DNA of 64,000 nucleotides from Branchiostoma floridae (lineage: Eukaryota > Chordata > Leptocardii > Amphioxiformes > Branchiostomatidae), in assembly GCF_000003815.2 (NCBI RefSeq), contig NC_049983.1, forward strand, positions 11,728,283-11,792,282, in the 5' to 3' direction. Below the pieces are notes generated by a model. It was not told the DNA's origin. It saw only the letters and a program-made list of their open reading frames with translations, and did not search any database. Below are positions 34,591 through 58,800 of this stretch, piece by piece (position 1 is the first letter of the stretch; each line of letters begins with the position of its first letter). A program made the translations under genes and the position numbers.

Positions 34591-36435
34591 TGCCTCGTTC
34601 ACATACAAACATAAACATTGTACTGTTGCTGTCAGGAAAGTCGTAAACTTCATTTCATTTGATAATAACCAGGGTAGAAATCAAAATTGAAATACTATCC
34701 TCTTCACATTTTAACATCCCCATTTCCTTCCTACTATCCCTACTTTTCTCCCAACCACCTCTTGTTTTTTCTCCCCAAAGTCAAACTGTGCACCTTGTGT
34801 GATAATACATCCCCTTTTCATGCCCCTTCCCTCATTAGCATACGTACTCATTTGCATAACTCCTCTGATTGGTTATCCTCCAAAATTGAGTTAATTGACC
34901 ACCTGTCTGTGGCACGCAGGGACAGGTGTAGTGCTAGCGCTGTGATTAGTAAAAATGATTTTTGTTCGGCTATTGGTGAGAAGAAACACAGTTTGACTAC
35001 ATATAACGTTACTTCTCTGCACCAATTTGTTGAATATCAATGGTAGTACTATCGCATGACTGCATTCTGTTCATGTCAAGTTTGTACCCACCTTTTCATG
35101 ATTTCCTTCAGATTTAACGTTAACGTTACTCTTTTAGCACATCTGGAGTAATAATGTCAAACATTGTGAAATTATATTTACATCTCAATTTATATGTTTG
35201 TATGAGCTTCATTGAGCTGCTACATGAAAAGTCATTGCTCAATAAGGAAGAAAAACCTGCTATGTTCTTATATTGATACCAGTTTATTCCTCTCCGCTGT
35301 TGTTTCCTTTCTTAATGTTATCAAAATAACATCAAAGCATAGAGAAAAGATTAAATACATTTTGAAGATATAGCAGAACCTTTAAGTAAAACTACAAGAA
35401 TCAGTGTGTTTTTCTTTCTTTGAAAACACACGTTGCATAGTTGGAATTCATCCTTTCCATTTGAAGTGATTTGTCAATCATAGTACAGCAATTTACTGTA
35501 GTAGCATATTCTGTTAAACAAATCTATCAAAGCCATTTATAGCAACAGCAAAAGGCTTTGCACAATAATTACAATGAGTTCATAAATTCCATAAATTGAC
35601 ATTATATAGAGTACCATTTGTCCACTACTTTACAACATTGACTTTAAAAACATTTTTGCCTCCAAATTCTGATTTCAGAATAAAAACATTAGATGATGTG
35701 CATGCAATGCCTATGCTATAGACTAAAAGCTTTGCTGCTAAAATCATGACATTCCCATATAAATCCTTATTTGATGTTTAACATCTCTTGTTACTGTTAG
35801 TCAGCATTTTAGAATTCTATCATTTAGCCTAATTGTACCAGATAGGGGTACTAATAAAAGATTCCAATTCCAATTTATCTACCATGCAATATTTCTCAAA
35901 TACCTTTAGCAAATGTTTTGGGCAATATTTTTAAAACAACATATAGATCATGTACATGCATCATGTATATTCAACAACATATACCCAAAACTAAGTACAT
36001 GTACTTAGACATTAGCCAGATGAAAGGATTGAATAGTATTTGGATGGTTTCAGTATCCTCATCTTACAATTTACATGTACTTGGAAGCATGTCAATAAAT
36101 CATACCTACTTTAAGCATAGATACATGATTTAGTAATCATATAGCCAGTGGAGCACCCAAGTAAAGCTACAGAGAGCAGCAACAGTGCCCAAAAATTGCA
36201 CAAAGTGAAAACCCCATTAAGTCATTTTGCAATTTTTTCGTCACAACCCTCCTTTCTTCATCCCTAGACATATTATGTGTAATAAAATAGACAATACAAT
36301 TTTCATGCAGCATTGTATCAACTCGCTGTCACCACCTTTTCCAGGTATCGTCAAGAACCTTTTAAGGTTTAAAAAGTTATCCCAACGCCCTCTTCTGTCC
36401 TTAAATCAATGATGAGATGTCCTTCAGATGCTGTT
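34591..36435. other. Convergent intergenic region, 3' UTRs only
   Basis: Between the stop codons of the hydrolase gene (plus) and the RIG-I-like gene (minus). It contains AATAAA words on the plus strand near 35673, 35856 and 36279 that could end the hydrolase transcript. It also holds three TAACGTTA palindromes (35004, 35115, 35121). No coding exon was recognised. Confidence 0.5.
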
Positions 36436-39400
36436 TTATTCATAGAGTTCCTCAGTGATGTCAAAAGGAGCCTTGGACAACTTGGCGATACCCCTGAGCT
36501 CTCCATCACCAAAGTCAAACAGGAAGCTCTTCACATTCATCCCATAGGCAGTCTCCTCCTGGAATGGGAAACAAATCGGTCAATTTCTCTCTGTTCAGAT
36601 TTAGCATATACCTTTGATCATTTTGCAAACTTAAAGGTATCTCTTATAAATTGATTCTTTCTTATGACATTTTAGGAGTAGCAATGACCATCCCTTAATT
36701 TCCTTTCCTTCTTGAAGTATTAGAACCAGGAATGTAAACCATTTTCCAACTACTTTGCAAAATTGGTGCCAGAAGGCAGCCCCAGAATGAAGCAGAACTT
36801 ACCTGGCCTTTCTTGTACTTGATGATTGGACCATACTGGTTTCTGCAGGTTGGGTTGCCGCAGAAGAGAAGACCTATTGCATGAAAAGAATCCTTTTGTT
36901 TGAAATTTGAAACCTTTATACAATTCAACCAGCATACAAAAATTGATTTGATGATGAGACAAACTAAAAACTGCTATGTGGTCATGAAGACATAGTTTGA
37001 TGAAGGTCTGTGTACATTTCCTGAATAGCGACAATATGTTTTAAAGTTAGATCAGATTAAATGAAATGAACAGAATCAAAGTCTTCATTTGACTTACCAA
37101 TATTGTCTGTTGTCCGATACACTTGCGGTTTCTTGCATACTATTTCACATTTGTCAGGAAGGGAGGGTTCCCTACAAATGTAGTTGGAGCCCTTATGTAC
37201 AATGTGAGTGCCATCACAGACAGCACGGTTACATTGTCTGCAGTACACCTTCACATCTTTGGCTTCAAATAGGCTTCTTCTGGTGGACTTGTTCTTCTGC
37301 TTTACTTTCCAATTTTCCAATTGCTTAGCCTGTGGAAAAATTGTATTTGATAGTTGCAATGAAATCATATCAATATAACATGTACGCGATGTGACCGCTA
37401 GTTGTTTTTAAAAACAGGGCACTTAGGAACATCAAGTTGACTGATGGTGCAATATTTTGAAAACAACTGCAAAAAATGGGGAAAAAATGCACAACAGTTT
37501 CAAATAACTTCAACTTAGGGCAGTAAGCTTTGAAGTACCTGTTCTGCCTTGACTCTGGAGTCAAAGTCCACCTGAGTTAGTTGGTCCATCTCGTTAAGTG
37601 CCTCTATCATGAATGCCTCCTTTTCCTGGTTCTCTAGTTCTCTCCTTTCATTGGTGGAACCACTGCATTCGGTACAGAAGTCTTTAGTATGTTTGTTTTT
37701 CTTAACTTGTTTTTGTATTATGATGATATAAATGTACAGTCAAACCTGTACCTGTACCTGTACAGGAGAACCTGAGCAGTGTGACCGCCTATCGGTTTCC
37801 CTTTGGATAATTTTCCCAATGGGCACAAACATTAAGAATCATGTTGATAATGAGCACCTGGCCTTAAAAATTTTTTTAGCAGTCCCCTCAGTGTTCTTCT
37901 TGGACAGGTTTGACTGTACTTGAGGTTTTGAACACAAATTGTTAACAAAACTGTTACAAGGGTGTTTCAATTAATTATCACTAATCACTGAATTGGCTTT
38001 AGTTTTAGTATTTCTGATTTGACATTTGATAGGTGATTTTGTTCCACTTACGCAGTTACCAGGAGGTAGCACTCTGCGTCCTTTGCGCGTGCCCTGCCTC
38101 GGGCCTGCACAGACCCAATCTCGTTGGACACAAAGTCATAGCGGATGACAAAGTTACACTTTGGCATGTCCAAACCCTCTTGGGCTACGTCAGTGGCAAC
38201 TAGCAGATTGCAGCCATCCTCAGATGAAAGTCCTAAGAAAGAGATTTAAAAAAGCATTATACAATAGTCCTATTTTTTACTTTTAGGACATGGAGAGGAC
38301 ATCCAAAAATTATACAGTAGAAGATCAGACTAATCATATAATCAAGTCAGTTCAAGAAGCATTGAAGTAGCTAGATAAAGTGCAATAGACTATCTGATGT
38401 CATCAATTTGGACTATCAAATAGACTGAAAACAAAAGACACTTCTCCAGCAAATAAACTGTTGTAGCACTGTCAAATGTCCCTTTTCATTTACTTATGTT
38501 CACTTCTTGCCCTGATTATTCAATAAGCAAAGTACAAAAAAAAACACAACAAATCCAATGCACCAAATGGAAAGATAGATGTCACCTTACCCTTCCTAAA
38601 ACTCTTCAACACTGCCATCTGCTGGGCATCAGTGATGGCCTTATCCTCTAGCTTGCCCTGCCCCACGAGGCGCTTGGCACGCATCTTCCCCTGTAGCACA
38701 TCCTGTTCCTCCACATACTGGACAATAGCCTCGGTCTCCCTGCGCTGCTGTGTTAGCACAATACCTGTAGGAGCAAGCCGGCTAAAATCAAATTTTGCTT
38801 TTTGAATTAGGGAACATCACATTTATATCAAAATTGTACCAAGATGATATTATATACATTGATTATAGATAGGACATTTATGAAATGACAAGTTTTTTTC
38901 TGTGGTCAAACATTCATATTGACTAGTTCAGTTCAATAGCAAATTAAAGCAGCTAACAGTACTCTGCACTCTAATGTAATATCTTGAAGAGCTTGGAGTC
39001 TAAAATCAAATCAGAAATTTTTGGCTTTGAAAACATGTTCTAAAATATATTCATGACATTAAGACCAAACTAACCATAGGATTCTGGCTCATTGAACTTC
39101 TGGATGAGCAGACTCCTGAGTTGCTGCAGCATGGGGTTGGGGAACTGGGTTTCCTCCTCCTCTGCATACACACAAAGTTCCTCTCTGATCTGGTCAAACT
39201 GCTGGTAGCAGAACTTGTCTATTGGCAGTTTGGGAGGCCCCTTCAGTTCTGCACGGGACTGGTACATCTTCTCATCCAGGAAGGCGATCGCATCCGCAGC
39301 CCGCAGTTTGGTGAACAGCCTCAGTGCCCTGGAGAAGGAAATAGAGGGAAACATATGATAACATATAGTACATGTTTTCCGACAAAATGATAAAAGAAAT

Positions 39401-42400
39401 CTACATAACAATAGTTGCCTTTAAAATCTGATCAGTGATCACCTATTCTATCTTGTATTAAATCTATCAATCTGCATATATTGGGTACGATATTCCATGC
39501 TTTGAAAAATCACAATGCTGTAACATCTAGCATACACATACATGTACAAAATGGCAACACTACATATCAAACGATGGAAATGAGAATAACTTTCAAAGTT
39601 TCAGACATGTCTGTTTTAGCATAACCCATGGAATATTTTTGAGAGGAGATACCTTAATACATTAGAGATGATAAAATTAGCAAAGTTTAAGTATATACCT
39701 CACCTGTTAAAGTCAAAGAGGTACTGGGCCACGATCAATTCGTTTCTCATGGTCTTAGCTTCAGCCTCCTTTACCCTCTCCACTATCCAGTTCTCACACT
39801 GTTGGGTGCCACGGTCGTACGGACAGGTGTCTGGGAACACCTTACTCTCCAGCCTCTGCATCAGGCTGTCCAGCGCCGTGCTGAACGGGTCGTGTGGCTT
39901 GCGAGGCTGCCCCGACAGAATGTGTATGGCATCTGGGGTGAACACGTGCCTTCTCAGTTCATCTTTGTTCTCCTTCACGTGGTCAACGCGAGAAGCGTCG
40001 AGGCTGGCGGACAGCTCGATCAGGTGCTGTAGAGCATTCCCCGACCCGCCCACACCAAGGGATGCTGTCAAGCCGATAACCTGGGGTAAACTCTTCTGGT
40101 GGGGATTGGCCAGTGCAAGCTCAGCCTTCTTCAGGAGATAGTAGCGCATGATCTGGTTGTACGGATGGTCGAGTGTTGTGTGATGACATTCGTCAAGGAT
40201 GAGCTGATCGAGGTCAGTGAGATCGAGACTTCCTGCCTTCAGCGAGTTGACCACAATCTGTGCAGTCAGCATCACTATGTCTCTTTTCTTCAGTGTTTCA
40301 CTGAGCTCTTCGGTGTCTCCGATTTCTTGAACAACGCCCAGAGGGAAGAGCATCTCAAACTGGTCCTTCTGCTGCTTGGTGAGGTTTCTGATGGGCACGA
40401 TGAACAAGGCCTTGAAGGGGAGATCTTTTCTCTTTGCCTCACTCCAGGCTCTCTCGGCTACTAATGCACTGACCAGGGTCTTACCGCTGCCTGTAGCACA
40501 GGTGATGATGGCATTCTTCCCCAGGAGAGCAGATCTGGCCAACTCCTTCTGGTATTCTCTCAATGCTACTTTTCCAGAATACTGTCCTTCCGGCATGTCT
40601 TCTTGTGCCACATCTTGTTGGATTGGACTTGCTCTCCTAGCAGTATCAGAGTGAGGAGAAGATGTGGGCCTTACTTTGGGTCTGACTGCTGGGCCTGTCT
40701 CCAGTTCTTCAGGCTTGGTGGGCGAGTCAACTTCCAGGTCTTCTGACTTGCCACTGCTGAGGATAGGAGATTGGCCAATGTTGGTACTGATGCTGCTTGG
40801 GCTCTGGTAAGTGATATTGTGGACTGTCCTATACCCCTGGGGAGATGCAGCTTCATTGACATCCTGTAGGTTGCTCGGGGAATCTTCTACTACATCTTCA
40901 TCTAGGTGTCGACTAGGGGAAGACTTGGTGGGGGTGCTGCTTTTGTTGTTGTTAGAGTGTTGTTGTGGTGGTGTTCTTAGCAGTATTCCAGCCTGTTTTG
41001 GTGAGGTCATGGCTTGTCCCTGTTCCCACTGTTTGTTCACCTCCATCAGGTACTGATCGTCTCCTTCATTTGGCGCTGCCCCCTGGTGGATTCTAGCAGG
41101 AGCTGCAGATACCTGTGCTGCCTGGAGCTGTTGCTGTAACTCCATGTGACTGGTGGTCTTGTCCATGCTGCCTACTGTGTCTGGAAGGTGGTGCTGATCT
41201 AACTGCTCTTGAATCTCTGCTACACTTGTCATCTTTTCTTCATTCTGGATCTCTTCCTGTTCATGCTTCATCCTGTGTAAAGCATTTGTAGCATCGTGAG
41301 CATGCTGATGGAGCTCGGTTAATGTGGGGGCTTTGTCAAGACTACCCACGGTGTCAGGGCTATGGAACTGTTTGGGAGATGTGGGGATACCAGGTGTACC
41401 TACAGGCTTGCTTCTTGGGGTTTCAGCAGTAAGCTCCCACTGCTGTCTCATTTCCTGCATGGTTGTCTGCTTACCTTCCTCTTGCGACTGCGCTTCCCCA
41501 TGGCATCGGGGATGCTTTGGAGGGGTTTGGTAAGATGCAGGAAAGTTGGGAGCACACTTTGGGATGGTGCTGTCTGGTGGAGTGGGAGGGCTGGCAGTGA
41601 GACCATGATGTGGGGCACTCCTTCCTGGGGCTGACAGGCCGGTATTTTGTTGAGGACTCGGTGGCGAATCAGCATGCTGGGGTGATGATATTGGTGGCAG
41701 TGCTACAGGTGGGACATTTCCTAGATTTTGGAAAGGTGCCAATTTCTGACCAGCAGCATTTGGGGCATTACGATTTGTTGTGAGGTTTGCCGAAGCTTGT
41801 TGTGTTTGCTGTCCTGTTGAAGCATCAGGAACCTGTTGAAACTGGTTTGCTGAGGAGGGCTGAACTGGTGGTGTTTGCTGTTGTATGTTTTGCTCTGTTA
41901 CAATAGAGAATAAAAGTTAGTTGGGTCTGCCTAAACACCTCAAATGACCTCAAACAACCTCAAATTGCTTTAATATGTAATGCACATGATAATGAAGCAA
42001 TGACATTGTGCGGCACTCTGGATACATTGTTTATGCATCTATGAATAATAAAAACGCAGTGGATACATTGTTTATGCATTTATGAATATAATAAAAATGC
42101 AGCAAGTCTGAAGTATTTACCAGTTATTTGGAGATAATGTCAGTCGGTTTCAAGATCAAAGCCATTTGAGAAAAAAACACTTAGCTTACAAGCATTTTAA
42201 ATTGACAATTACAATGAATTGTGCTATGCTATATCTAAATGTATGAGCCAATAGCATCCACAGTTTATTGTACTGTCATCTGTGGGCTGAAGAACTTGTA
42301 TCGAGAACTATCCCATGAAGACTTCTTACACAGATGATCTAACATGGCGACGACCAAAGTTAGTCTTTCTCTCCTAGGCCCACTTTTTGTAACATTTACC

Positions 42401-43566
42401 AGTTTGCTGACTTAAAACATGACCAAGCCAGAAATTCTTTTAAAATTCATTCATGTCATTTGTTTATAAACCAAAGATTATCTTTACAAACTTTTGTAAG
42501 GTTTGAAAAAATGTGATACTATTTTATCTCTCTGCTTTATTGGCAAAATAATAACAAAATAAATTTACGCACTATTACCGCATAGTTCAAGCCTATAACT
42601 ACGCACACACACACAAACACACACACATGCTCCCCAGCAGACACAGGCAAGTGCAATCAGATAAACACACATGCACACAAGCAGACACACAGGTCCACAG
42701 ACACATAAACACATACATGTAGGCACAAACACATGATCATACACACATAGGTACACACACAGAAATAGTAGAGCAGTACCATGGCACACTGTTTGTATAT
42801 ATACACACATGTTAACACACACACACGCATATCGTACATACATAACTCACATAGATAAATAGATTTTAAAAATTGGTTACTGTACACAAATCAATATTTC
42901 ATCCAGGGGACAGCTGTATGCATTAACTTTGGTGACGATTTTATTCAGCACTGTGGATAAAAACCAACATGACTCATTTGTGCAAAATGAGACAATTATC
43001 ATTCATCCGCAGTTACTGCACCCCGTGTTAGATTTTAAAACACACATGAACATAATTTTACACTTGGAAACATGGAAAAGATGCACCAGATCAAAAAAGG
43101 ACTCATCCGATATCCCCATACTAGGCCATAGGTCCTCATACTGAACTTACAGGGTTTTTTTGGGGGTGGGGTGGGGGGGGGGTTGGGGTGGGCAGATCAT
43201 GTCTTGCTGTTTTAAGGGAATTCTGACATGACGTCGTTACACTCTGTTTACCATAGTAATCTTACCTAGATAAAGCTTACCATTTCGCAGCGTTGTGAGT
43301 AGAGTCAAGAGGTCTTGGCGACCTATTCCCTCCTTTTCGCCCAGAAGGACTTCAAGGAAGCTGAAGTCAGTTTCTGTAATCCTGCCCACTTTGTTGAGCT
43401 CTGTGAATAGCTTTAGCGGCTTGTCAATATGTTCCTTTGCTGAGGCAGTGATTATGCCAGTACACAGAAACTTCAGCTCTTCCAACTCGTCGTTTCCAAG
43501 TTCTTTGGCAATTTTATACAAAATCCTGTACAGCCGTAGCGGCCCATTTTGGCCAGTGTCCGCCAT
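36436..43566 (-). CDS. RIG-I-like receptor with N-terminal death-effector domain (DED-RLR), 9 exons
   Basis: Exons (minus): 43266-43566, 39704-41894, 39075-39328, 38591-38764, 38052-38232, 37539-37662, 37098-37329, 36803-36873, 36436-36558; 1216 residues. Residues 1-100 form a single DED (ELEELKFLC helix, then GRQDLL matching the DED RxDL motif) where vertebrate RIG-I and MDA5 have two CARDs. Residues 102-540 are a Pro/Gln/Ser-rich linker. The helicase follows: motif I ATGSGKT (567-573), motif II DECH (668-671), TAS (710-712), motif [13 protein letters not shown] and motif VI QARGRAR. The C-terminal RIG-I domain has CxxC at 1105/1108 and CxxxxC at 1157/1162, the zinc spacing of vertebrate RIG-I. 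Inferred role: cytosolic viral RNA sensor signalling through DED partners such as FADD or caspase-8. Exon 1 has two in-frame donors (5 residues apart). Domain calls are confident; ligand and signalling are inference. Confidence 0.92.
37737..37916. mobile_element. 180-bp MITE with CAGTCAAACCTGT ends, TA duplication
   Basis: It has the same terminal word as the 895-bp element at 2716-3610. Ends CAGTCAAACCTGT and ACAGGTTTGACTG are flanked by TA at 37735-37736 and 37917-37918. It lies in the DED-RLR intron between exons 5 and 6, 75 bp upstream (in gene direction, before) the exon 6 acceptor. It is likely a short deletion derivative of the same family. Confidence 0.8.
42020..42102. repeat. 41-bp tandem duplication in DED-RLR intron 1
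   Basis: Two adjacent near-identical copies starting GGATACATTGTTTATGCAT at 42020 and 42061. Confidence 0.85.
42601..42845. repeat. Degenerate CA-rich microsatellite
   Basis: About 245 bp of interrupted ACAC/CACATG repeats in DED-RLR intron 1. Long apparent frames through it are artefacts of the repeat. Confidence 0.9.
43162..43192 (+). repeat. G-run cluster, potential G-quadruplex
   Basis: Runs of 5, 4, 10, 4 and 3-4 G separated by one or two T on the plus strand, about 75-100 bp inside intron 1 of the DED-RLR gene. The plus strand is the template strand for that gene. Confidence 0.6.
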
Positions 43567-43596
43567 CTTGCTCCTGGTTTCGGGAGACTACCCGAG

Positions 43597-43607
43597 GGGG
43601 ATTCCCC
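43597..43607. promoter_or_regulatory. Palindromic kappaB (Rel/NF-kappaB) site upstream of the DED-RLR start
   Basis: GGGGATTCCCC matches the kappaB consensus on both strands and ends 31 bp before the ATG at 43566. A near-consensus GGGAAAGTCC lies at 43614-43623. Around the ATG itself the sequence CAAGATGGCGG resembles a YY1 site. Confidence 0.6.
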
Positions 43608-45282
43608 GCACTAGGGAAAGTCCAGAATGATGTAATTGACAGCATGAAATTTCAATCGCCCAATTTCACGCGTTGTCACTCTACACACCACTGGATCGGT
43701 GTACAGAAATTTTCATCGTCGCACAGCACAAAATTGAAAATCTAACTAGTTTAATGTCAATACAGTGGACTTTGCTATAACCTCATTGATCAACCGCACT
43801 TTGACTTTGAGTGTAACGTTAGGGTCTTTAAAAGCCCTCCCCCATCCCATTCTAAACTATTTTTCCATTTAACAGTTCCCATTTGCTGGCATACACACCC
43901 TGTGCCTGACTCGAACATTTGTTTTCGAAAAACAGTTAGCAAATTTCATGGATAGACGATCTAAGTTTAATAGATGTGGCGTGTAATGTGTGCACCAAAC
44001 CCCCATACATGCTCCTTGGACTGTGATGTGGGTCATACGAAAGTTCGCGACCTACAGGCACTAGCGTATTAACTAGCCTTGGGTTTTGGGGCAGCACGTA
44101 TTTCGATATATTTTGGGAGGAGATGCATTTACACGCATTACACGGTCGATTAACTCTAGGGCGCGGGCGGACCAGCTTGGGTTAATTATCACCGCTATAG
44201 CTAGGAGTTAGCGAATCCTCGCGAGTTTTTTAAAACGCTCTTCTAGGGTGTAGGAAATACACGATTGTGTAATCCAGACCTTTGACACATGTCACACGGT
44301 AAAATCGTTATTCAAGCGACCGTGGCAGGAGTGTCGTGTGTAAGTTTAAGAGCTTCTGTTAGTGTTATAACGTTAGGTAACGTTATGTGCGACTAGATGA
44401 ACTCAGGTATAATGCATCAAAATTAAAATGCTTGATTTCTGTCTTTCAAGTCGAATGACTTTTCCAACAGTAGATATGTGACCTCACTTTGACTTCGCCT
44501 TATACAGTTATAGGAATCGATCCTTTGATCACGCATGCACATCCGCGACTCGTAACAAGCCTCCCTGCAATTTTAGGTATGATCGTACAGTGTCGCTTCA
44601 TTACCTGCACCGTTGGCAGGTGCGTTGGGAGGACCTTGCAAGTGACCATCCCAGCTGGTGATGCATGCTGTCCAGGCAGTTAAAATCAGGAAGAAATACG
44701 GATCCGCAGAAAAGACATTCGCCATATTCCAATAGAACTGAGTCAGCTTACATATATGACTGTCATGCTCAAATAGGGCTGTAGTGTAGGGCTGATATTG
44801 ATCAGCATTTGATAATGGCCATGTAGGCAGGTGTGCCCAGACGGCTTGAAACTTTACTTACTTCAGCAATTTTGTTTACCCGTGATAGTAATGGCAACGC
44901 TAACCCGGTAATATTAAACACACCTTAGTGATGGGTCCGTATACATTAGTCGTGACATTTTCTTCGATACGTGTGGTCACGGCATCACAATCAGGAGAGC
45001 AACTCAAGACATCGATCTCCGGCTCGCTCACATTCAAGTAGTTCCCCTTCAACTCTAACCGTTGTATGTGAAGCACACAATCTATAGTTGGCTACATCTG
45101 TACGTTAAAAGAATATTTGTCATAATCATTCTTGTTCTTGGAACACAACCATCATCATTTGGACGCACAAACCAAATAACACGTCGTCGGAAAAAAAATA
45201 TCATCGAGCAATGGAAAACGTACATGCTAGTCATGTGTTTTAATTTGTAGTTATGTACTTGAACTTTATGATGATAAGGTAA
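43608..45282. other. Intergenic upstream region of DED-RLR, nothing else recognised
   Basis: About 1.7 kb with three TAACGTTA palindromes (43814, 44368, 44378) but no coding exon or recognised RNA gene. Confidence 0.5.
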
Positions 45283-45960
45283 ACATTCGTTGTTTCCCCT
45301 TCGACGGAGAAATATATCATTGTCAACCAACTACGCCTCCGGCTACAAGATACATATATACAAAAGTGGTTTAATTCTATTGAAAACAATTCAAAGCTGT
45401 CTTTTCTTAGCAAGTCAAAAGAATGTTATGAACAAGAAACATACCTTTATGATATAAATAATTTTGAAATTCGAAAAGCGATTACTCAGTTAAGAATCAG
45501 CAGCCATAAATTGAATATTGAAACAGGTAGATATTACAATGTAGCCCCTGACCAAAGGTTCTGTCCTTTCTGTCCAAAGCATATTGAAGATGAATTTCAC
45601 TTTTTAATGGAATGCTCTAGATACGCTATTTTACGTAATGAGCTATTTACATTTCTCGAATACAGTACAGCAGATTTCAAGAGACTCGATGCTACAGACA
45701 GATTTGTATATATCTTTGGATGCCACGACTCCCATTATGCAAGGATAGGCAAATATATCAAAGACTGCTTTGCTATTAGAAAGAGTAATGAATCTCATGT
45801 ATAGCCCAACTCGATTGTAACACTATTTCAAAGACTAATGTGTCAGCCCTTCTTGATACGTTAATTAGGATATCAAGTCTTATTCTCTACACCTATTTTG
45901 TACTTTGTGTAACAGTCATTGCCATACTTTGTACCATGTACAAATGTCGAGCAATAAAGT
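45283..45960 (+). mobile_element. 3' fragment of a LINE (RT C-terminal zinc-ribbon end)
   Basis: An open frame from 45283 to TAG at 45804 encodes only the C-terminal end of a non-LTR element. A charged helical stretch (ISSHKLNIETGRY) is followed by the Cys/His motif FCPFCPKHIEDEFHFLMEC (about 45562-45615), as in the zinc-binding region after many LINE reverse transcriptases. The rest of the element is absent, so it is a 5'-truncated copy. A short 3' UTR with AGCAATAAAG at about 45950 ends it. Confidence 0.75.
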
Positions 45961-46656
45961 TCTATATATCAAGAAGACACACGGGTGTGTATTTTCCTCA
46001 ATAGTGTTGGTTTATAAGCCTCATAAACAGTCGTTTTATTACCTTCATGTATGTCAAGTGTTCACCGTATGTTTATTTGGTGTCTGTGTTTATTCGCTTT
46101 GGGAAAGTCACTGAAACGCTGGTGGCTGTGTACTCTGAAGTTTTACTACAGATACGGCTGATAAATTCAATTGAAATACATTAGTTTCAAAGCTATACAT
46201 TAGTTCCTTGGCGCTCACGCCTATATAGTATATGAGAAATTTCAATACCACACCCTAGTCTGATGAATTATTTCGTCCAGCGAAAACATTACAAGACCTT
46301 TTTCTTCTGAGGAGGACTGGAGTTTCAACAAATACATGGCTGTTGTTGACCGTGTATTTACTTTGACTCAAGTGTGCCAATATTTTCGACTGAGTAAACC
46401 GCAGTTGACAAAGCACCCGGGCCGATCAATGTTGAAGTATGTTACCCAGAAAGCAGTATGTTCCAAACTCCGGGAGGCCTAAAACTTGACAAACAAGACA
46501 GGAAAGGCACCCGAGTTTTTGTCCCAGGTCGTTTTGGGTCGAAGTGTTTTGAGAACTGAAGAATCTGCTCTTGAAGTGAGCTGTGTTGTGTTTCTTGGCT
46601 CAGGTGTCAAAGGTGTTACCTGGAACAAAGGGACCGAGGGGGTGTGTGTGACCCTC

Positions 46657-46721
46657 ATTTGCATAGCGTCCATAGCGACCCCGCCACGTTCCTAGCAACC
46701 ACAGAGAACAATATGGCGGCC
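46657..46721 (+). promoter_or_regulatory. Promoter cluster before TTLL3: octamer, two X-box-like sites, YY1-like site
   Basis: ATTTGCAT at 46657-46664, GCGTCCATAGCGACC at 46666-46680, GTTCCTAGCAAC at 46688-46699 and ATGGCGGCC at 46713-46721. The two middle sites have the inverted half-site layout of RFX X-boxes that control ciliary genes. The ATG of the tubulin glycylase is 94 bp downstream. Confidence 0.5.
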
Positions 46722-46814
46722 ATAGTAGGTTAGTCACAGAACTTGAGAAAAGATTTGCTTCGCGCAATGCAGCAGTAATATGCAGTCTTCCAGGGACAAA
46801 ACGGCCTTACAGCC

Positions 46815-49800
46815 ATGACGGAGGATGAACAGTTTCACTTCACGTTTTCTCCTAAGATTAATGAGGCGAGCAAGGTTCTCGCGGAGCAGAAGAGAGCGCG
46901 GGAGAGACTCGCAGTTAGTCGCATGGAGACCATGATGGCCGAGGAAAGACAGAAACAACAACAACAACAAGAACAGCAATCCCAGCAAAAGGAAATTAAA
47001 GATGACAACGGGATTCTTCAGGCCTCAGGTAGTACGTCTCTGCCTCAAGACGCGCCTCCGTCTAAGCCACCAGGGCCCATCAAGACTTTTCAGAGGTATA
47101 GTTTCGAGAGCGAGCTGACCTTCGCTCCCAGACTGAACGCCACGAGCATGAGATTAGCGCGCGAACGGGAGAGACAGGGGAACGTGGCTTCATCTACGGT
47201 CAAGCAGACGTCCGAGGAGGAGTACATGTTCACCTTCCAGCCCAGAGTTAGCTCCAGCAGTCGGAGAATCGCGCAGAACCTCGGCACCACCTTTATGGCG
47301 CGGCAACAGATGCATTTGGAGAGACAACGAAAATTGGTAAGTCTCAATATGACGGTTCAAGGCTAAAGTAACGTTTATAAATCTAAACATACCCATTCAT
47401 TATTCAATGTGGTTTACTCAAAAGCTGATTTAGAAATCTCTCCGTTTGATTTGGAATGTGATATACGCTGGTTATAGAAAAAAATTGGCCATGTAATTAT
47501 TATAATTACATTAGGGCGTGATTCTGTCTCCCTTTGGAATTGTATAATCTGTTTAGTTTTGCAAATGCAAAAGGGGAAAGTGGTGCCTACTAATACTACA
47601 GGCCATGTAGCAACAGAATTGTGGAAAATCGTTTCTAAATTCCTTTTTGTTTTTTTACTACCAGTCTTTCCAGTCCCCCTGTTTGCTTGAGGGCAGCATT
47701 AGCTAAGGCCTGATGTATTCACAATCAGAGGATTTAGAATTTAGGTCAGCCAGAAGGCATGATAAGCTGCTCTTAAAGTGTTGTCACTTTCGCCCGGCTA
47801 GACGTCTCAATCAAATCACTCTACCATTCCAATAGAATTACTTCACCTTGAACTGTGTGTAACATGAATATTGGTTTCAGCATTTAAGCGACGTAATACC
47901 AAATTTCTCACTTGCTTCTATGACTTCGATGGTAAGAAAGGGGATTTTCATATTGTTTAGACAAGGGAAATGTTGCATTGGAATTAGCATACTGAGGTCA
48001 CTATTTCTGTTTGGGGAACCTCATTGAAATTTACCTAGGCTGCATCAGGATTCCATGAATATGCAAAAAGCGGCTTAATTTCAATAAAAAGATAGTTCTT
48101 TATTCACTTTTGATGATATTAGAAATTATCTTGATGATGTTATTTTCTTGTAATCCAAGCCACACAATTTAAAAAAAGAGAGATCTTCCCTATGGTAATT
48201 CAAAGATGATAAGGCCTGAATTCATATTCATTGCGACTGTGACAGGGAGACCATATTCTTGTCATTTTACATTGCACAGGTAGGTAAGATTATGCATTTC
48301 CAGCTAGAAAAATAGGTTGGCTTCCAAGGGTAATTATGTTTTATAAAGGTGACTGAAGGAAAATATTTGCACGCCTTAAAGGTCTGAAAATGGGTTAGCT
48401 AAATGAACCCTTTGAAAATGATGGCTTGAAACACAACCTCGTGTAACACTAACAACCATTTTTTCATATAGGTGGGGCAAAGTGCTTGAATGAAAAAAAG
48501 CATTTTGATTTTTGAGTAAGAGTATGTGTTATCCCCACCTTTAATAGGGTGAATTTTGATAGGATTTGCTCATTGTATGTTTTGAATTTGAAAATATTGT
48601 ACATAAATCTCAATAAAATTATGTAGACTTGCATACATTTATGTCGTTACTACCATGTAAACAATTATGCCGTTGCTGCCATGTATAGAATATGTCGAGC
48701 AAATGACTTGTTTTATTCATTCCATGACGTCTTTATTTGACAGGACTGTAGCATGTAAAAACATGCATATTTCCACCTTGAAATAACAGGATTGTTTGGT
48801 ATTCAGTCATGTTAGAGAGCAGTTTTACCCTTGAGGATTTAGCAAATCTGAGATCTGATGTTATTAGTCCTACCACATCCATCTCAGTCGAGTGGCCGTG
48901 TTCCAACTAATTGGATTTGACGTGTTACTGTTGTCGCTTCCTCGCAGCTGGAGAAGGGGCAGCTCCCGTCGTTCAAAGAACCGATGCAGTCCCGACCCAA
49001 GAGATTACGCCATCAAAAGGTGCGCCATGCATTTATGCATGATTTGTCGTGGCAGCACTCTTGTTATTACCGCTATCATGTAGCTGGGGTTAGATCACGC
49101 TCTGGGAAAAGCATAATAAATATGTTTTCTGAATAATTTAAGGAAACACTGATTTCAAATAATATCAATCATTGTCTTAGCAACAACACACCAGGTGATA
49201 TGCACCAGGGACAGTAGGAGCGACATCTTAAATGCCGATATTCCCAATTGTTTTTCTTCTTTATTCCTGACTTAAGTAACATGTTTCGTCAATTGTAATG
49301 CCAAGTTTATGTACAGTTTACGATGTTGATTAAAAAAGCCACAAAGTTGTGATAGCGTTATGTGAATCAGTATACTCACAAAAGGCTTTGCGTACATAGG
49401 GATTAAATGCCCGTGTCCGAGGTCATTTTGACAGGGTGATTAAAGGTGATTTATTATTTGTGACGTTTCCACTTCCATAACAACCAAAGTTTGCCCAAGC
49501 AGCACATGTCAATTTGTCTCAATTATCTTGGACAATGAAAGTATTGAAATGTCAAGGGGAACGTACCATATTAGATATCCAGGTAGAAAACACCTGTGCG
49601 TACAGCAAAAAGGGAAAGGCTAAGTCTTTAAAGCTCTTTTTTTGTATTAATGGTGTGTTGAAGACTGTGAAGTGTATTGTACCTTTGAAAAGCCGACAAA
49701 TTCCATGAATGCTGGGCTTCTCGTGGCTGCAGGCAGTTAAAGCTTCTTATACAAAGGATAAGTGAGAATGAATTTGATTTGATGTTATTCTTTATAGTTG

Positions 49801-52800
49801 CTGGGGGAGGCCAAAGCCAACCTACCATCCCTTCCTGGCAACACCAGCGGAGAGGAAGGGGGGCAACAGGACTCATCTTCTGATGGGGGTGAGTTCCAAA
49901 TGGGGTGAACCATTGTTGATCTTGTGAGGGTGGGGCAGCTCTGGTGCATTTTTGGGTTGCCTGGAGCTTGCTACTATAAGCGTTGAATAGCTTCTGCCAA
50001 GTTATATTTTAACAATCATGTTTAAAAATTGGAATTATTACTAAATGTCAGTTATTTTGCCAATGTTGGTTACTGCTTATGCAGTTATGATCATTATTAC
50101 AAGGCAACAACAGCAAGTTTGTTATTCATCAATAAATATTTGGGGATAAGTTTTATTTTTTATGGGTTACCGGTAACTTCTTTTTTTTTTTTAGAAACGA
50201 AATTGAAAATTCTCTCAGCTTTGTAGATCATAGTCTAATGTTAAACATTTTGTTTTGAAGAAGCCAGTGAATGATATATACATCACAAAAGTGTCTGTGA
50301 CAGTACAGGTGTAGTGAAAATGGACCGTCTAAGTTGGCATAATACAAAAATGTAATCCTCAGACATCTGCAGGGGTAAGACCCTGTGCCTGGGCTGTTTT
50401 GAAAACACCGCTGGTCATGCATGCATGGCTCCTGATAGCAGGCTGAGTCATCATGGGATCAGATGTACCAGCATGACATTTCCAAACTACTCCAGTTTAA
50501 ACAACCTGCAATTACAGTACCATACACAATGTATGAGGGACAGACCACTCTTGCTAAAGGGAGTTTCTGTAAAAAAGGTGGTAAAATCTTGTAGTTTTGC
50601 TAGAAAATCCAAGTAAAGGAAATGTGAATGAATTCATTTAAGAGTAGGATGTTGTCAATCCTCCAAATGTTTGATTAGAATATTCTTAATCAATCTATGA
50701 AGCTAATTACCTTGCTGTTGAATCTACAACCTAGTATTATATTCAATATTACTAGTTTTTTCCTGCAATATTAGTATCAAATTTTGCCTTTTGTTTCATC
50801 ATATTGACATGACCGTTCCCCTTTGACCCAGGTTCAGACAGTGGCCTGACCCCTCGTAAGCGACCAACGAGAGGCGGAGAAGTCAGCAAATCACACCCGG
50901 TCTCTTCGCTCGGTGCGTCATCTAACGGTGAGATTGACCACAGAATATATTAGATACTAGTACTTGATTGTTGTGATAAACTATGTAATTCTTTAATTTG
51001 TTTATTTGCTGTTGATGTAGAGATAAAAGCAATAGCTTCATGTAGTGTTTGGCAAATAAAATTCCCAAAAGAAATTGTTTGCATTGATGACTCTAAAATG
51101 CACTAACTTGCAGTTTGTTTTATTTGTTATTGAATATTTCAATGTTTCAAGTATTAGTTTGATACGTTATATCCTATTGATAAAAAATATGTTGCCAACT
51201 TCATTGATTCAGATGAATTAACCTTGTGGACAATAATAGTTGGAGGAAAATTTCTGAAGAAATTATTGGATTAGGGCTATTTAATTCAATCGCTCGACAC
51301 TCCAGGTTACATGAACGTTGCACGTTTTGTTTGTGCCATGGTAACAACTTGTAACTGTGTCTATGTTTGTGACATATAGGGCTACATGGTTCCAGAAGGA
51401 AAACGTTGCCTCCCAAATATCTGCCTGGCCTCCCAGGTTATTGTTTTGTATAATCTTACATTGGTGATGGCATCTTTGTTCACCTTTGTCAGGTGTTACA
51501 TGGGTATTGGTGCTCAATGTAAGGTGAGGGTTGTGGTGTTCTGTTGCGTCAATATAGTGTTTGAAGGGGGAAGGTCTCAGGTGAAAAACTCAGAGAGAGT
51601 TGAAAAGTTATATTTCAGTTACAATCCAATGACGATTGCTCATTCAATTAAAAAGGTCAATTTTGTACTGGATAATACAGACTATTAACATGGTTGAAAA
51701 TGGAGTACTATTTTTTTGTCCAACCCATTCTAGAACGCATGCTTCACAGTGTTTCAGTTTAAAATAAAAACTTTCCATCTTGCGCATCATTCTCACTCTG
51801 GTTTGTTGATAACCTTAAATGTGTTTTTGCATGGTATTGCATGAATGTGGTCTTCGGCACTGGTATGTGACTGTCATACAGACAGCCAATTCAACACTGT
51901 GGCATGAAAAATAAACAACAGAACCAGACACAAAACCTATGCATGTTTATGTGTTTTGAACACAACAATGACATGGAGACACAAAACATGTTCTAGAATG
52001 TCACTGCTTCATTGTTCTCTTTATGACTCTCACTGGTGACTGTGATTTTGCAGATATCAGCAACCCACCAGCCACAGCCCCTCCCTCACACCAACGTTCG
52101 CAAACACTACCTCCCACCACCGCAACGTCAACCTCTCCCCGGCGCAGGGTTAACACAGCAAAAATCTACGCCAATGTGACACGGGTCAAAAATGCAAAGC
52201 TTGCAGCAGAAAGGGCTATGAGGGTAGGTGGTTACTTCTACCAAACTGAGATTTCTAGCTACAGTACAGAGTTGTTTGATTCACAGTGAAACAGCAGATA
52301 TTGGTTTTTGCAAAATTTGAGAATCGTCTTTGGGTCTTAAAATGTATCCAGAAACATAACTGTGGATTTTATTATCTACAAAATTGGTATTTTCATCAAG
52401 CTTATTTAGATATTCCCGCACAATATATGAATAACTGGTAGTTTTTAAACATGCATTATTGATATCCGGAATATTGTATGTTTTGTTTTTCCACAGATGA
52501 AAAGAGTCTTTACCATTCATGGTCCCTACCCATTTGTAAGGAAGGCTCTGCGAGAAAGAGGCTGGGTGGAGCGCTTTATCAAACCTGAAGTGAAAAAAAG
52601 GGAACGCTCCAGCAAAGAGGAGGATAGTGATGATGATAATGGTAAGATGTTTACAATAACTTTTAACTGTGCTCCTAAATCTTGGTGTGAAATCCCATAT
52701 CAGTTTCCATAGTATGTTATCTGCTTCCTTTTCAATGTGCTTATGGTATTGGAAAAGACTTTCTGATCAGCATTGTTAGCCATTGTAACATTTGTTATTC

Positions 52801-55800
52801 TTTACCATTGAACGGAAAACAACAGAAAATTCAGCACTATGGACAGCAATCGTTCTAACTCTTTCAGCCCTTATCATTTTTGTACAATAACTGGTGCTTA
52901 TAAAGTGACTTGCACTTCCATGAAGTGACTGTTACTGAAGAGATGACTACCCTCTTACCACAGACAATGGAAACAGCAGTGACAGTGACGATGACGGTGT
53001 CTGTGATGCGGTTTGTCAGGATAGCACGACGGAGGCAGACAGCGGTGATGGTGACACTGACAATGTGTATGGCATCATGGTGGGTAATCAAGAGATGCTC
53101 GTGGTACGTGTGTTGTCTTTTTTTTCTTTTGCTATTCTTTAATGTTGCATGAAGAGGTGGCACGTGTGTTGTAAGTATGGTAAAAACACAAAGGATAATA
53201 CCGGTCCTGAAAATGGCACTTCTATGAAGAACTTGTTCTTGCATGAAAAATATAAGGGTGCAAGAGTTTTGCATAGGGGAGCATGTTTTCTGGACTGGAG
53301 TAATGCATGCTTTACTATCTGTTGCACTATGCTAACTTGAATATATGCTAACTTAAAAGCATTAAGCACTTTCATATTTGTTTGCGTTTGCTCATTGTAA
53401 AGCATATGTGTGTTAACTCTAGTAATCATTTGTTTTGCATGTTTCTAACAGTAGATTTTCTTGCAGCATAAGTTACATTTATGTTGCTATTTCAATTTTG
53501 TATTTTCCTCATATGCAAACATCTTCTCAAATATTCTTTCTATTCATATACGTCAAAGGCTATCTAACACATTGCCAGCCTTGCTATGTCTAGGCTATGC
53601 TCTTCTCCAACATACAAGAACTTTCTAAAATTCTTTTCAATTTCGTTTCTTCCTGGGATCCTAAAGATGAGGCAATTACACAAAATGGGAGTGTTTTGGA
53701 TGAAAACATTTTCAGTTTGGCAGTCTTTGATACTATGAAAAATGTTAACAAATTCTTCAAACTTAAAACAGCCCTTCTCCCATTAGAAAGAAAGGAAACG
53801 GAACACTTCAAGACCCACCATATTGTTTTGTACTTTCTCATTAGTGACCATAGTTGTTTTCTGTTCCAGTCACGGATGTTGAGGAATGCAAACCCCTCCT
53901 TCATCTGGACTTGCCGGGCCAACACGTTTGACAGCAGGATGTTGAGGAAGGACCAGATCTACAACCATTATACAAAAGCCAACTTCACTACTAAGGTCTT
54001 GTCTACATTTTGATGTCATATAATCTAAGATATATATCAAGTCTTACATTTTGACTTGAGGTACTTTGGGATATCCCAAGTGCTTGAAGTAGATACCAGT
54101 ATGTGAGTTTCGCTTTGAGTTGTTTGAAGTTGTTTAATGACCAGACAAAAATAGTGGTTTTAGTAGCATTCAAAAGCTTTTGGTTTTGAATATGATTTAT
54201 TTTATTTTCAGGTGGGGCTATTAATGAACCTACGGCAGCTACCCTGGTACGAAGACACAGATGCCAACTGGTTCTACCCTCGCTGCTACCGTCTAAGTGT
54301 TGATGAAGAAAAGTTTGATTTTATTGGTAAGTACGTCCTCAGAAATTTGAAAATCTTTCACCTGATGTTTGGAAAGGGATGAAGAATTCAAACCACTTTA
54401 AGAGAATGGTAAAAAAGAGACCGTGTGGCGCAGCAGCAGCACATTTGCCTTGGGACCGAGAGGTCTTGAGTTTGAATCTGGCTGCCATGTCACCAATCTT
54501 GTGCCCTTGGGAAAGGCACTTTACACGTATTTCCTCACTTTACTCAGGTGAGAATGAGTACCTAGTTTCGGCTACGGCCGTTAAAGAACCTCACATGTGC
54601 GATGGTGCGGTGTGAGTGGATCCAAAACTTACAGACTTGTGTACGTCTTACATACTGTGCTTGCAGTCCTCAGCCTAATGAGCTTAAGCATGTATAAAGA
54701 AGAAAAAGAAGAAAAATAAGAAAAATACACAATAATTATTATGATTTTTTCCTTCCAACCCAGATGACTACAGACTGACGGCAGCAGCCAGTGTGCTGAA
54801 GGTGACACTCCAACAGCTCCGACCTGAGGTGGACACCCCCAGCCAATCAGATGAGGAGGATGAAGGGGAGGAGGAGCAGGAGGGTGAGGATGAGGAGAAT
54901 GTACCGTCAGACATGGACACCCCCCGCAGTACCAGCAGTCAGAAAACCAACACAACTACTACCTGCAGTCCCAGAGGTTTGTCTGCATTACATGATGATC
55001 TGATATTAACCAACACTGTGCGAAAGGGTGTGATTTCCGGACAAAGTCGGAGTTGACATATTTTTGGACATGCTAAATATTCGGACTGTGTCCGGGCACG
55101 ATGTTCAATATTTCCCATATCTGGAAATATCATGAGTCAGGAATTGTCTTGTTATGTATCCGGACAAATAAGACTTTCCTGCTTTTCAAGATACGCGCCA
55201 TTGACGTTTCTTGCCTCCGAATACGTGATATGTTCTACATTCTTTACATATCCAAGGTCCATATATTTCGATAAGGAATACCCGGACAAATTAGGAGTTT
55301 GCACGAAGCATGATGTGCATTATTTCTGGGCCATTGTCAGATGACATTTTCAATTCATTATGTCTCAGAATATCATGAGTCATGAAATGTTTCAGCACAT
55401 GCCCGGACGGATAGAATTTCCCGTTCTTCCGAATACGTGTCAGGGACGTTTCATGTTTTCGAATTCATACTATTTTCTTTTCTTTCCATTTACGAGACAT
55501 ATCCGCGACAGATATTCCATGGATTAGTTTTAGGACAGATTCGAAGTTAGCATATTCTGACCGTTACCGATAAAGGTATTCTATACGTGAATTGTGAATC
55601 GGTGATTGTTTTATTGCGCATCTGAACAAATAAGACTGCATTTTTTTGCCGAAATTTTCGCTCCTTCCGAATTCATATTCCGTTCCATTTACGACAGATG
55701 TCCAAAACAGAAACATTCCAGAGATCAGTTTTCGGACAACTTAATGGTTAACAAATTACTTTTCTTGTCATACATGAATCTGAGATTGTTTTGTTGGGTA

Positions 55801-58800
55801 TCCTTAAAAAGGTTTCCTATCTTGTCAAATACACGTCATTAACGTTTTTGCTTCTGTATATTATTCTACAACGAGTATGCCCGATGTCAATGTATGTTTA
55901 CTCCTTAATTTTCTGGTAATTGAAGCTTAAGCTTCCATATACTGACAATAAGCAAATATACTGACATCGACATTTACAATCAAATGACACAGAAAGCAAT
56001 CTTTGCGATGGTAACAATTATGAGTCAAGTATTATTGTTTCTTTGCATATCCGGGCAATATCTTGAACAAAGTTCAGTCAAAACACTCCACCCCAGCGGT
56101 GCAGTTTGGGATAGGTCCATATCCGGACAATATCTTGAACAAAGTTCAGTCAAAACACTCCACCCCAGCGGTGCAGTTTGGGATAGGTCCATATCCGGAC
56201 AACATCTTGAACAAAGTTCAGTCAAAACACTCCACCCCAGCGGTGCAGTTTGGGATAGGTCCATATCCGGACAATATCTTGAACAAAGTTCAGTCAAAAC
56301 ACTCCACCCCAGCGGTGCAGTTTGGGATAGGTCCATATCCGGACAATATCTTGAACAAAGTTCAGTCAAAACACTCCACCCCAGCGGTGCAGTTTGGGAT
56401 AGGTCCATATCCGGACAATATCTTGAACAAAGTTAAGTCAAAACACTCCACCCCAGCGGTGCAGTTTGGGATAGGTCCATATCCGGACAATATCTTGAAC
56501 AAAGTTCAGTCAAAACACTCCACCCCAGCGGTGCAGTTTGGGATAGGTCCATATCCGGACAACATCTTGAACAAAGTTCAGTCAAAACACTCCACCCCAG
56601 CGGTGCAGTTTGGGATAGGTCCATATCCGGACAATATCTTGAACAAAGTTCAGTCAAAACACTCCACCCCAGCGGTGCAGTTTGGGATAGGTCCATATCC
56701 GGACAATATCTTGAACAAAGTTCAGTCAAAACACTCCACCCCAGCGGTGCAGTTTGGGATAGGTCCATATCCGGACAATATCTTGAACAAAGTTAAGTCA
56801 AAACACTCCACCCCAGCGGTGCAGTTTGGGATAGGTCCATATCCGGACAATATCTTGAACAAAGTTCAGTCAAAACAGTCCACCCCAGCGGTGCAGTTTG
56901 GGATAGGTCCATATCCGGACAATATCTTGAAAAAGTTCAGTCAAAACACTCCACACCAGCGGTGCAGTTTGGGATAGGTCCATATCCGGACAATATCATG
57001 ACAAAAAGTCACTCATGATATTGAATACCAGCGTTGCTGTGAGGGAATGGTCCATATCCGGACAATATCACGAGGCAACTTTACTCGTAAAGCGGTTATG
57101 CAAGCTGTGCAAAGTGCCGAGCAGACCAGTACGTTGGCATGTCAACGGTGCGCCTACTGGGGCAGTCGTTGCAGATAACAGCCTACACCGCGCCGCAGCG
57201 TTTGCTGCTGTGTACAACTTTGAAACTGGTAAGTACATGATGCATTTATTCACAAAAAATAATGCACAATGCCATGTGTTTCCGTGAAACAGGCATGACG
57301 GATGACACTAACTTGCTTGGAACCATCTGGAGGAGTCCTTAGGTAACAAGACTATATTAGGAAGTCACATGACTTGACTAGACCAATAGTAGACCAGCTG
57401 GTGACAGCAGTTAGGTTTGAAACTAGATTTGAATCCCAGTTGCCGCTGCCGCTAGCCGCTACCGGGCCAAGAAGTGAGTAGTGTAGCTCTCTAGTACATA
57501 TATTGTATATACATAGCAGTTACCGTTCTTAGTTCCGTATATGTCTGTCAGCAATGTCTGTTATCCCTTCCTAGTGTTTTGTGTATTGAATAATTAGTAG
57601 TGTGATCTTTTTGTAAAGATTGTTGTATGATAGATCACTTCTCTTTCAGTTGGAACCCCCGCGTGTCATCCCCGGCTTGTCTACAAATTGCCCGTTCCAT
57701 AGTTAGTTAAATTCTCATATTATTTTGTGCTGTATGTGCCGTAACGGCTGCTTCTAAACTTTGCTGTCCTGTTGTTTTGGCTGGCTAAATCTTTAATAGA
57801 ACCAAGGAGAAACTGTAATCTCCTCACTAGGACCAATGTGATTGTGTGCATATAAAATTCCATTCGTTCTCAGGGGGTCCTTATCTGTGCCATCTGTGTG
57901 GCCCGCGCCCTTTGATGATAGCCGACTCCAGATTCCTGCCTTTGTCCCCGTCTTGTCCTGCTGTGATTTTTATGGCCGTGTTGTTTGAATAATTTTACAT
58001 GTACCGTTCAGGGGTTCGGGGCAGTTACTAGCCGTTTTTTTTTTCCATTCCAGCCGCTGAGCCTCTGTTTCCCAATCGCCTGTCCTGCCATGCCGACGAC
58101 CGAGGCCTACCTCCTGGTAACACTTACGACAGTCTGTGCCCGGTGCCGTTGTTTCCTGCCAGAACTGAAGACGGACGGTGCCTGGACTATGCAATGGAGC
58201 GGACTGTCCTCGAGACGTGCCGTCGATATTGCGGGGTCTTGCCAGAGCATCTTCCGTCGCCAATGATCGTCCAAAGACGCAGAAGAGGGCGCCCCGGACG
58301 ATGATTCCACAGTCAACAAGATACGGACTTATAGAGGACTTGAAAGTGGACTGTCGTACTGATTTCGTAATGACATTTTTATCCTACGAATATTGATTGT
58401 ATGGTTTATAACGTTAGACTTGTGTCGGATACTGTACATTTGATATTGTACATTTAAACTGATCAGTTTTGTTATGATGTTATTGACTTGGGCTTGATAT
58501 TATTGGATCTGACAGTGAACTGTTTAACTTTGGCTTCACTCGAGCTTCACTTTTTGTGAAGACCAATGAGGTTGTAGTGAGCTAAAACTTCCTTGGTAAG
58601 ACTAAGAGACAAATGCATATTGATTTGCCCCTTGACGTTAACATGATCTGTTCCTCCACATAATGTATTTGTTGTGATACTTGTGTCATCTGATTTATAC
58701 AGGAAAGTCTTTGAAAAGCTTTCACAAAATGTAGCCTTACCGAGTTAGCATTTTCGGGGTTAAAACGGACAGGAAACGTTAAATATTAGGTATTTAGCAT

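What the first reader, a model, noticed from the sequence alone, without database searches (positions are those of the whole stretch)
36436..43566. RIG-I-like receptor with a death-effector domain instead of CARDs
Seen: a single DED at the N-terminus (ELEELKFLC, RxDL motif), joined in phase to a long linker, DECH helicase motifs and a zinc-binding RIG-I C-terminal domain. Known: vertebrate RIG-I and MDA5 use paired CARDs to reach MAVS, while DEDs mediate FADD and caspase-8/10 assembly. Inference: this receptor could couple RNA sensing directly to a DED death or NF-kappaB platform without a CARD adaptor. Amphioxus immune-gene surveys have noted shuffled RLR architectures, so the exact fusion may be partly known.
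Basis: partly seen in the sequence, partly recalled or inferred. Interest (0 to 1): 0.9.

Follow-up and report, generated by a model that had tools for sequence, protein, structure and literature searches.

The report
Lancelet RNA sensor with death-effector domain
A lancelet gene joins the RNA-sensing body of an MDA5-like antiviral receptor to a single death-effector domain, the type of adaptor used by FADD and caspase-8, so a virus-RNA sensor might plug straight into the cell-death machinery; similar fusions are already known in some marine invertebrates.

Summary
On the minus strand, nine exons from 43566 to 36436 chain in phase, with GT/AG introns, into a 1211-residue protein: one DED, a ~440-residue P/Q/S-rich linker, a RIG-I-type helicase and a RIG-I C-terminal domain, each over Pfam's cut-off. 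The helicase part is closest to MDA5/LGP2. In the window's genome (513 Mb, unnamed, lancelet by several signs) I find seven RLR loci. Five have CARD exons upstream (in one perhaps a neighbour's), one has Death and TRADD-N exons, and only this one has a DED in the capped listings. The same genome holds a FADD-like and a caspase-8-like locus. The exon 1-2 junction lacks transcript proof.

Most likely mechanism, inferred: RNA-driven clustering of the helicase brings DEDs together and nucleates FADD/caspase-8 without a CARD adaptor. A FLIP-like brake, or hand-over to the lancelet DED-TRADD-N family, is not excluded.

DED-RLRs are printed for a brachiopod and as the lophotrochozoan 'L2' type. I found no printed chordate case in the searches named, but key papers and figures could not be read. 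New member of a known kind; moderate interest.

The parts
43281..43566 (-). Exon 1: start codon and the single death effector domain (aa 1-95); alternative donor at 43266 adds 5 aa
   Evidence: Pfam DED 62.4 bits; PDB caspase-8 DED1 E 3.4e-8; splice phases
41895..43280 (-). Intron 1; no further domain found in any minus-strand frame
   Evidence: Pfam 0 families in 3 of 3 frames; codon score -0.34 to -0.39
39704..41894 (-). Exon 2: P/Q/S-rich linker (about aa 96-535) and helicase domain 1 with GSGKT, DECH and TAS (to aa 825)
   Evidence: first Met of exon 2 is aa 241, and its frame is closed by stops just upstream
39075..39328 (-). Exon 3: rest of the helicase insertion domain
   Evidence: RIG-I_C 760-881; phase
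38591..38764 (-). Exon 4: helicase domain 2, first part
   Evidence: Helicase_C 898-1016; phase
38052..38232 (-). Exon 5: helicase motifs V and VI ([19 protein letters not shown])
37539..37662 (-). Exon 6: region after helicase domain 2
   Evidence: phase; aligned to MDA5
37098..37329 (-). Exon 7: start of RIG-I C-terminal domain, first zinc pair CRQC
   Evidence: RIG-I_C-RD 1096-1205
36803..36873 (-). Exon 8: second zinc pair CGNPTC
   Evidence: aligned to RIG-I CTD
36436..36558 (-). Exon 9: end of C-terminal domain and stop codon

Best explanation
It is one gene for an MDA5/LGP2-class RIG-I-like receptor whose CARDs are replaced by one N-terminal DED on a long, probably flexible linker. Likely working: the helicase and C-terminal domain bind viral double-stranded RNA and several copies line up on it; their DEDs are brought together; they nucleate DED assembly with lancelet FADD and caspase-8, giving caspase-8-driven death or NF-kappaB-type signalling without a CARD adaptor such as MAVS/IPS1. 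Shown here: gene model from sequence, domains, the only DED among the seven RLR loci found, presence of FADD-like and caspase-8-like loci. Inferred: transcription across intron 1, RNA binding, DED-DED contact and its outcome. My confidence is about 0.92 for the single fused gene and 0.5 for activation through FADD/caspase-8.
For: Exons chain in phase. Domains over cut-off. The first Met of exon 2 is aa 241 and its frame is closed just upstream, so it needs a 5' exon. No Pfam domain at E<=0.1 in intron 1 or the 3.2 kb upstream, 6 of 6 minus-strand frames. Chance adjacency about 0.003. The body matches MDA5 at 4.1e-78. The DED is closest in the PDB to caspase-8 DED1, then FADD, and shares LKFLC with the lancelet FADD-like and caspase-8-like DEDs, where the sampled array DEDs read MKVFC, VKLFC, VKLLC and the like. 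FADD-like locus on C3: DED and a Death domain (cut by the end of the locus) in one frame. Caspase-8-like locus on C18: one full and one partial DED, and the best caspase hit of the genome about 3.5 kb downstream on the same strand; its DED1 groups with human caspase-8 DED1, 98/95, though both rows are long and the bootstrap had not settled.
Against: No transcript data. The DED fold could not be modelled (tool off). The DED is divergent: 30% identical to lancelet FADD-like and caspase-8-like DEDs (25 of 82 columns each), and its place in the tree is unresolved. Whole-genome BLAST ranks two C17-array DEDs slightly above FADD (33.0 and 32.6 against 32.0 bits). The CTD's own match to solved structures is weak (E 0.029). 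Codon bias of exon 1 is only mildly unusual: 9 of 116 overlapping open windows score as high, and the linker scores higher in another frame. Three AATAAA and one ATTAAA lie in intron 1.
Confidence: 0.5

Rival explanations
1. Brake instead of trigger: the single DED works like FLIP, soaking up FADD or caspase-8 so that RNA sensing dampens death or favours NF-kappaB signalling.
For: A lone DED joined to a non-caspase body cannot itself cleave; FLIP is reported to suppress dsRNA-induced apoptosis (PMC3129316, title and start of abstract in listings). The DED is divergent.
Against: FADD too has a single DED and activates (recalled). The helicase motifs and CTD look intact, as expected of an active sensor.
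Confidence: 0.2
2. The DED speaks to the lancelet's expanded DED-TRADD-N family (array on C17) and not to FADD/caspase-8.
For: C17 DEDs are the best BLAST relatives by a small margin, and many share IGRQDL with exon 1. The one C17 member scanned (L017) has TRADD-N, and DED-TRADD-N-WD40 proteins are described for Branchiostoma (PMC8195603, passages).
Against: The LKFLC patch is shared with FADD-like and caspase-8-like DEDs, not with the sampled array members.
Confidence: 0.2
3. Two genes: exon 1 is the start of a small DED-only protein, and the helicase begins at another exon or at Met241.
For: Read-through from exon 1 stays open to 43237, within a 116-aa ORF; AATAAA at 42945, 42541 and 42269.
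Against: Phase-matched splice sites, no other candidate exon by Pfam or codon score, low chance of adjacency.
Confidence: 0.08

Closest known systems
DED-type RLRs of lophotrochozoans ('L2' type; Lingula anatina and others; PMC8998645, passages and section 6)
   Same: N-terminal DED, helicase core, RIG-I C-terminal domain
   Different: Different phylum; whether the fusion is shared or independent was not tested because their sequences are not held
MDA5/IFIH1 and LGP2/DHX58
   Same: Helicase core most similar to these; RIG-I-type C-terminal domain
   Different: MDA5 has two CARDs and LGP2 no adaptor domain; here one DED and a ~440-aa linker
CARD-bearing RLRs of Branchiostoma floridae in a 100-kb cluster with IPS1 (PMC4565553, section 8)
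   Same: Same kind of receptor; a similar cluster is on C4 of this genome
   Different: Those are clustered with CARDs on another chromosome-size contig
FADD and caspase-8 DEDs
   Same: Nearest solved DEDs
   Different: There the DED is joined to a Death or caspase domain
DED-TRADD-N-WD40 proteins of Branchiostoma and TRADD-N-RLR fusions of cnidarians and brachiopods (PMC8195603, passages)
   Same: Death-fold adaptor joined to a sensor part; in the WD40 proteins by a low-complexity linker
   Different: No TRADD-N found in this gene

Membership tests
RIG-I-like receptor | SF2 helicase with motifs I, II (DECH), III, V, VI | tested here: met
   aligned with MDA5 over 2-578 of 673 residues searched
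RIG-I-like receptor | RLR helicase insertion | tested here: met
   RIG-I_C, 39.1 bits over cut-off 23.2
RIG-I-like receptor | Zinc-binding C-terminal domain | tested here: met
   RIG-I_C-RD 30.8 bits over 25.6; four cysteines align with RIG-I in a weak match (E 0.029); zinc itself not tested
RIG-I-like receptor | Binds non-self RNA | not testable with these tools
   none
RIG-I/MDA5 type (CARD-bearing RLR) | Tandem N-terminal CARDs | tested here: not met
   No CARD model listed at E<=0.1 in the protein, intron 1 or 3.2 kb upstream, nor at E<=1 in exon 1
Death effector domain family | Match to the DED profile over the curated cut-off, with the RxDL motif | tested here: met
Death effector domain family | Six-helix DED fold | not testable with these tools
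   structure prediction switched off
Death effector domain family | Homotypic binding to FADD or caspase-8 | not testable with these tools
   candidate partners present in the genome only
Lophotrochozoan L2 DED-RLR | DED + helicase + RD architecture | tested here: met
   one search compared with the description in PMC8998645
Lophotrochozoan L2 DED-RLR | Groups with L2 proteins in a tree | not tested
   those sequences are not held

The most novel reading that the evidence does not exclude
A chordate has a one-protein RNA-to-death switch: an MDA5-like receptor whose RNA filament directly nucleates a FADD/caspase-8 complex without MAVS, either kept from an early bilaterian DED-RLR or invented again in parallel with lophotrochozoans. 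Together with the likely Death/TRADD-N RLR on C1, lancelets would have three separate adaptor codes on one sensor body.
Probability: 0.35. Interest if true: 0.75.

Novelty: new member of a known kind. Interest (0 to 1): 0.5.

Why it matters
In vertebrates RLRs reach caspase-8 through several adaptors (recalled). A natural sensor-DED fusion in a chordate relative of vertebrates makes a direct question testable: can RNA-templated clustering alone seed a caspase-8 complex, and was that an older wiring beside MAVS?

Tried and rejected
Second DED or hidden CARD: no hit in 3 of 3 minus-strand frames of intron 1 and 3 of 3 of the 3.2 kb upstream. An earlier scan of one frame of 36000-45998 gave 0 families; it was not the frame of exon 1. 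One + and one - frame of 45000-59999 gave nothing; the other four frames of that whole stretch were not scanned.

Recent copying of the DED from another lancelet gene: not supported. The 37 non-self hits are 29-38% identical.

Linker motifs: one LEVD (aa 482), one PxQxT, two other TRAF-like words and three W/F/Y-x-x-L/I/V words. Short patterns in a long low-complexity linker, so not used.

An NF-kappaB-like site upstream of the ATG: kept only as a note.

A further helicase hit, C1:6353314 (E 1.7e-6), has no RIG-I_C-RD hit near it and was left out of the RLR count.

Papers: Huang 2008 (PMC2493400) and Zhang 2010 (PMC2858798) are not held, so their lancelet RLR tables were not read. Figures and supplements of PMC8998645 were not seen, so I cannot say whether its seven B. 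floridae RLRs include one drawn with a DED.

Full report
WHAT IS THERE. The minus-strand gene runs from an ATG at 43566 to a stop ending at 36436. I built nine exons by hand from the sequence and checked them in a script: all eight introns are GT...AG, phases chain, and the product is 1211 aa without internal stops. Exon 1 alone scores 62.4 bits for DED (cut-off 35.9); the only other family listed at E<=1 is pP_pnuc_1, under its cut-off. The whole protein hits DED 14-94, ResIII/DEAD, RIG-I_C, Helicase_C and RIG-I_C-RD, all over their cut-offs.

IS IT ONE GENE? For: the first Met of exon 2 is aa 241 and its frame is closed just upstream; neither intron 1 nor the 3.2 kb upstream of exon 1 gives a Pfam domain at E<=0.1 in any minus-strand frame; intron 1 scores as non-coding. 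In the whole genome 138 of 150 listed DED hits pass the cut-off (22 of 172 candidates were not scored). With 142 as a slightly high count, the expected number of same-strand DEDs within 3 kb upstream is 0.0004 per RLR and 0.003 for seven, under uniform placement, which the clustering of DEDs makes rough. Against: no transcripts; three AATAAA and one ATTAAA in intron 1; a read-through ORF from exon 1; the codon-bias test is weak (9 of 116 overlapping open windows score as high, and the linker scores higher in a wrong frame).

WHICH RECEPTOR IS IT? Against solved structures the helicase-to-CTD part is closest to MDA5 (266 bits), then LGP2 (256) and RIG-I (about 229). The C-terminal domain alone matches RIG-I CTDs best but only weakly (E 0.029), with all four zinc cysteines in register. 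The DED is closest to caspase-8 DED1 (E 3.4e-8) and then FADD (E 0.0017).

THE WINDOW'S GENOME. The window is C5:11728283-11792282 of a 513,431,437-base genome in 431 contigs. Signs of a lancelet: a C4 cluster of RLRs with CARDs like the B. floridae cluster of PMC4565553 (section 8 read); a large DED array on C17, with TRADD-N in the one C17 member scanned (L017), as described for Branchiostoma (PMC8195603, passages); and seven RLR loci, the number given for B. floridae by PMC8998645 (passages). The loci, by RIG-I_C-RD and helicase hits, are four on C4 at 23.35-23.41 Mb, one on C4 at 20.86 Mb, one on C1 at 15.12 Mb, and this one. This one was not itself listed, I think because its CTD is split over three exons, so other split or divergent CTDs may be missed. 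One more helicase hit (C1:6353314) has no CTD hit nearby and was not counted.

N-TERMINI OF THE SEVEN. I built no gene models for the other six. Same-strand CARD_2 exons lie directly upstream of the helicase hits at C4:20.86, 23.372, 23.392 and 23.409 Mb. For the one at C4:23.361 Mb the nearest upstream CARD is at 23365187. Similar lone CARDs follow the CTDs of the units at 23.387 and 23.405 Mb (23385041 and 23401642), so it may belong to a neighbouring gene and this RLR may be CARD-less like LGP2. The C1 locus has a Death exon and a TRADD-N exon upstream on the same strand, with splice sites that allow a phase match of TRADD-N to the helicase exon. No DED hit lies on C4, and the three on C1 lie at 4.48, 5.79 and 27.85 Mb, far from that RLR. 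So this is the only DED-RLR among the seven found, within lists that were capped (22 DED and 37 CARD candidates not scored).

PARTNERS. A FADD-like locus (DED and part of a Death domain in one frame) is at C3:23.446 Mb. A caspase-8-like locus is at C18:15.714-15.719 Mb: a full and a partial DED and, about 3.5 kb downstream on the same strand, the best caspase hit in the genome. Its DED1 groups with human caspase-8 DED1, 98/95, in a tree of 33 rows (30 fetched DED loci of 150 hits, a second DED of one, the window DED and the human one) whose bootstrap had not settled. Exon 1 is 37% identical to human caspase-8 DED1 (28 of 75 columns), 30% to the lancelet FADD-like and caspase-8-like DEDs (25 of 82 each) and 24-29% to the seven other DEDs aligned; one search used 9 of the 30 fetched loci. 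The tree does not resolve the origin of exon 1. By BLAST two C17 DEDs edge out FADD.

MECHANISM. Inferred from known RLR and DED biology (recalled): RNA-bound helicases cluster, their DEDs meet, and DED assembly with FADD and caspase-8 follows. The long linker would give reach. No MAVS/CARD step is needed. A brake (FLIP-like) or a hand-over to DED-TRADD-N proteins fits the same sequence data, hence confidence 0.5.

WHAT IS KNOWN. DED-RLRs are in print: Lingula RLRs with DED or caspase domains, and the 'L2' type clustering independently in lophotrochozoans; [quoted passage not shown] TRADD-N-RLR fusions are in print for cnidarians and brachiopods (PMC8195603, passages). dsRNA-induced apoptosis with caspase-8 up-regulation is reported in Nematostella (PMC11251625, passages). 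Paper searches showed no paper whose title or listed start of abstract names a DED-RLR in a chordate; several listings were capped (for example 15 of 63 papers). From them I read passages or sections of PMC8998645, PMC8195603, PMC6321704, PMC5101713, PMC4565553, PMC11251625 and PMC2686710 only. Huang 2008, the lancelet immune survey, is not held, and figures and supplements were not seen, so prior notice in a chordate is quite possible.

VERDICT. It is a new member of a known kind, of moderate interest because it is a chordate case with both expected partners in the same genome.

Noticed in passing
L069:179-907 and L069:1463-1774 (minus strand; C1:15126179-15126907 and C1:15127463-15127774), upstream of the helicase exon L068:6837-7826: A likely second non-canonical lancelet RLR: Death (51.4 bits) and TRADD-like N (42.1 bits) exons collinear with an MDA5-like helicase and a RIG-I C-terminal domain (that CTD match runs over one TGA); splice sites allow a phase match, but no gene model was built.
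   Followed up: partly
window 43596-43607: A near-palindromic NF-kappaB-like site (GGGGGATTCCCC on + strand) about 30 bases upstream of the ATG; the looser pattern has 9 overlapping-counted matches in the window against 3.86 expected. The ATG itself sits in AAGATGGCGG, a YY1-like start context (recalled).
   Followed up: no
window 10466-12784 and 12927-14606, + strand: Two long ORFs with reverse transcriptase domains, apparently non-LTR retroelements (the class is my guess).
   Followed up: no
window 56046-57069: A 72-base tandem array, 14.2 copies, 96% matches.
   Followed up: no
window 60789-61019, + strand: Exon with a tubulin-tyrosine ligase family match just over cut-off, 21.4 against 20.1 bits.
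   Followed up: no
G000:C17:18285641-18900648: A very large array of DED exons; the one member scanned (L017) also has TRADD-N.
   Followed up: partly
G000:C4:23365187, 23385041 and 23401642: Lone CARD exons that lie 2-3.5 kb downstream of three RLR C-terminal-domain exons in the cluster, as if a receptor-plus-CARD unit had been repeated.
   Followed up: no
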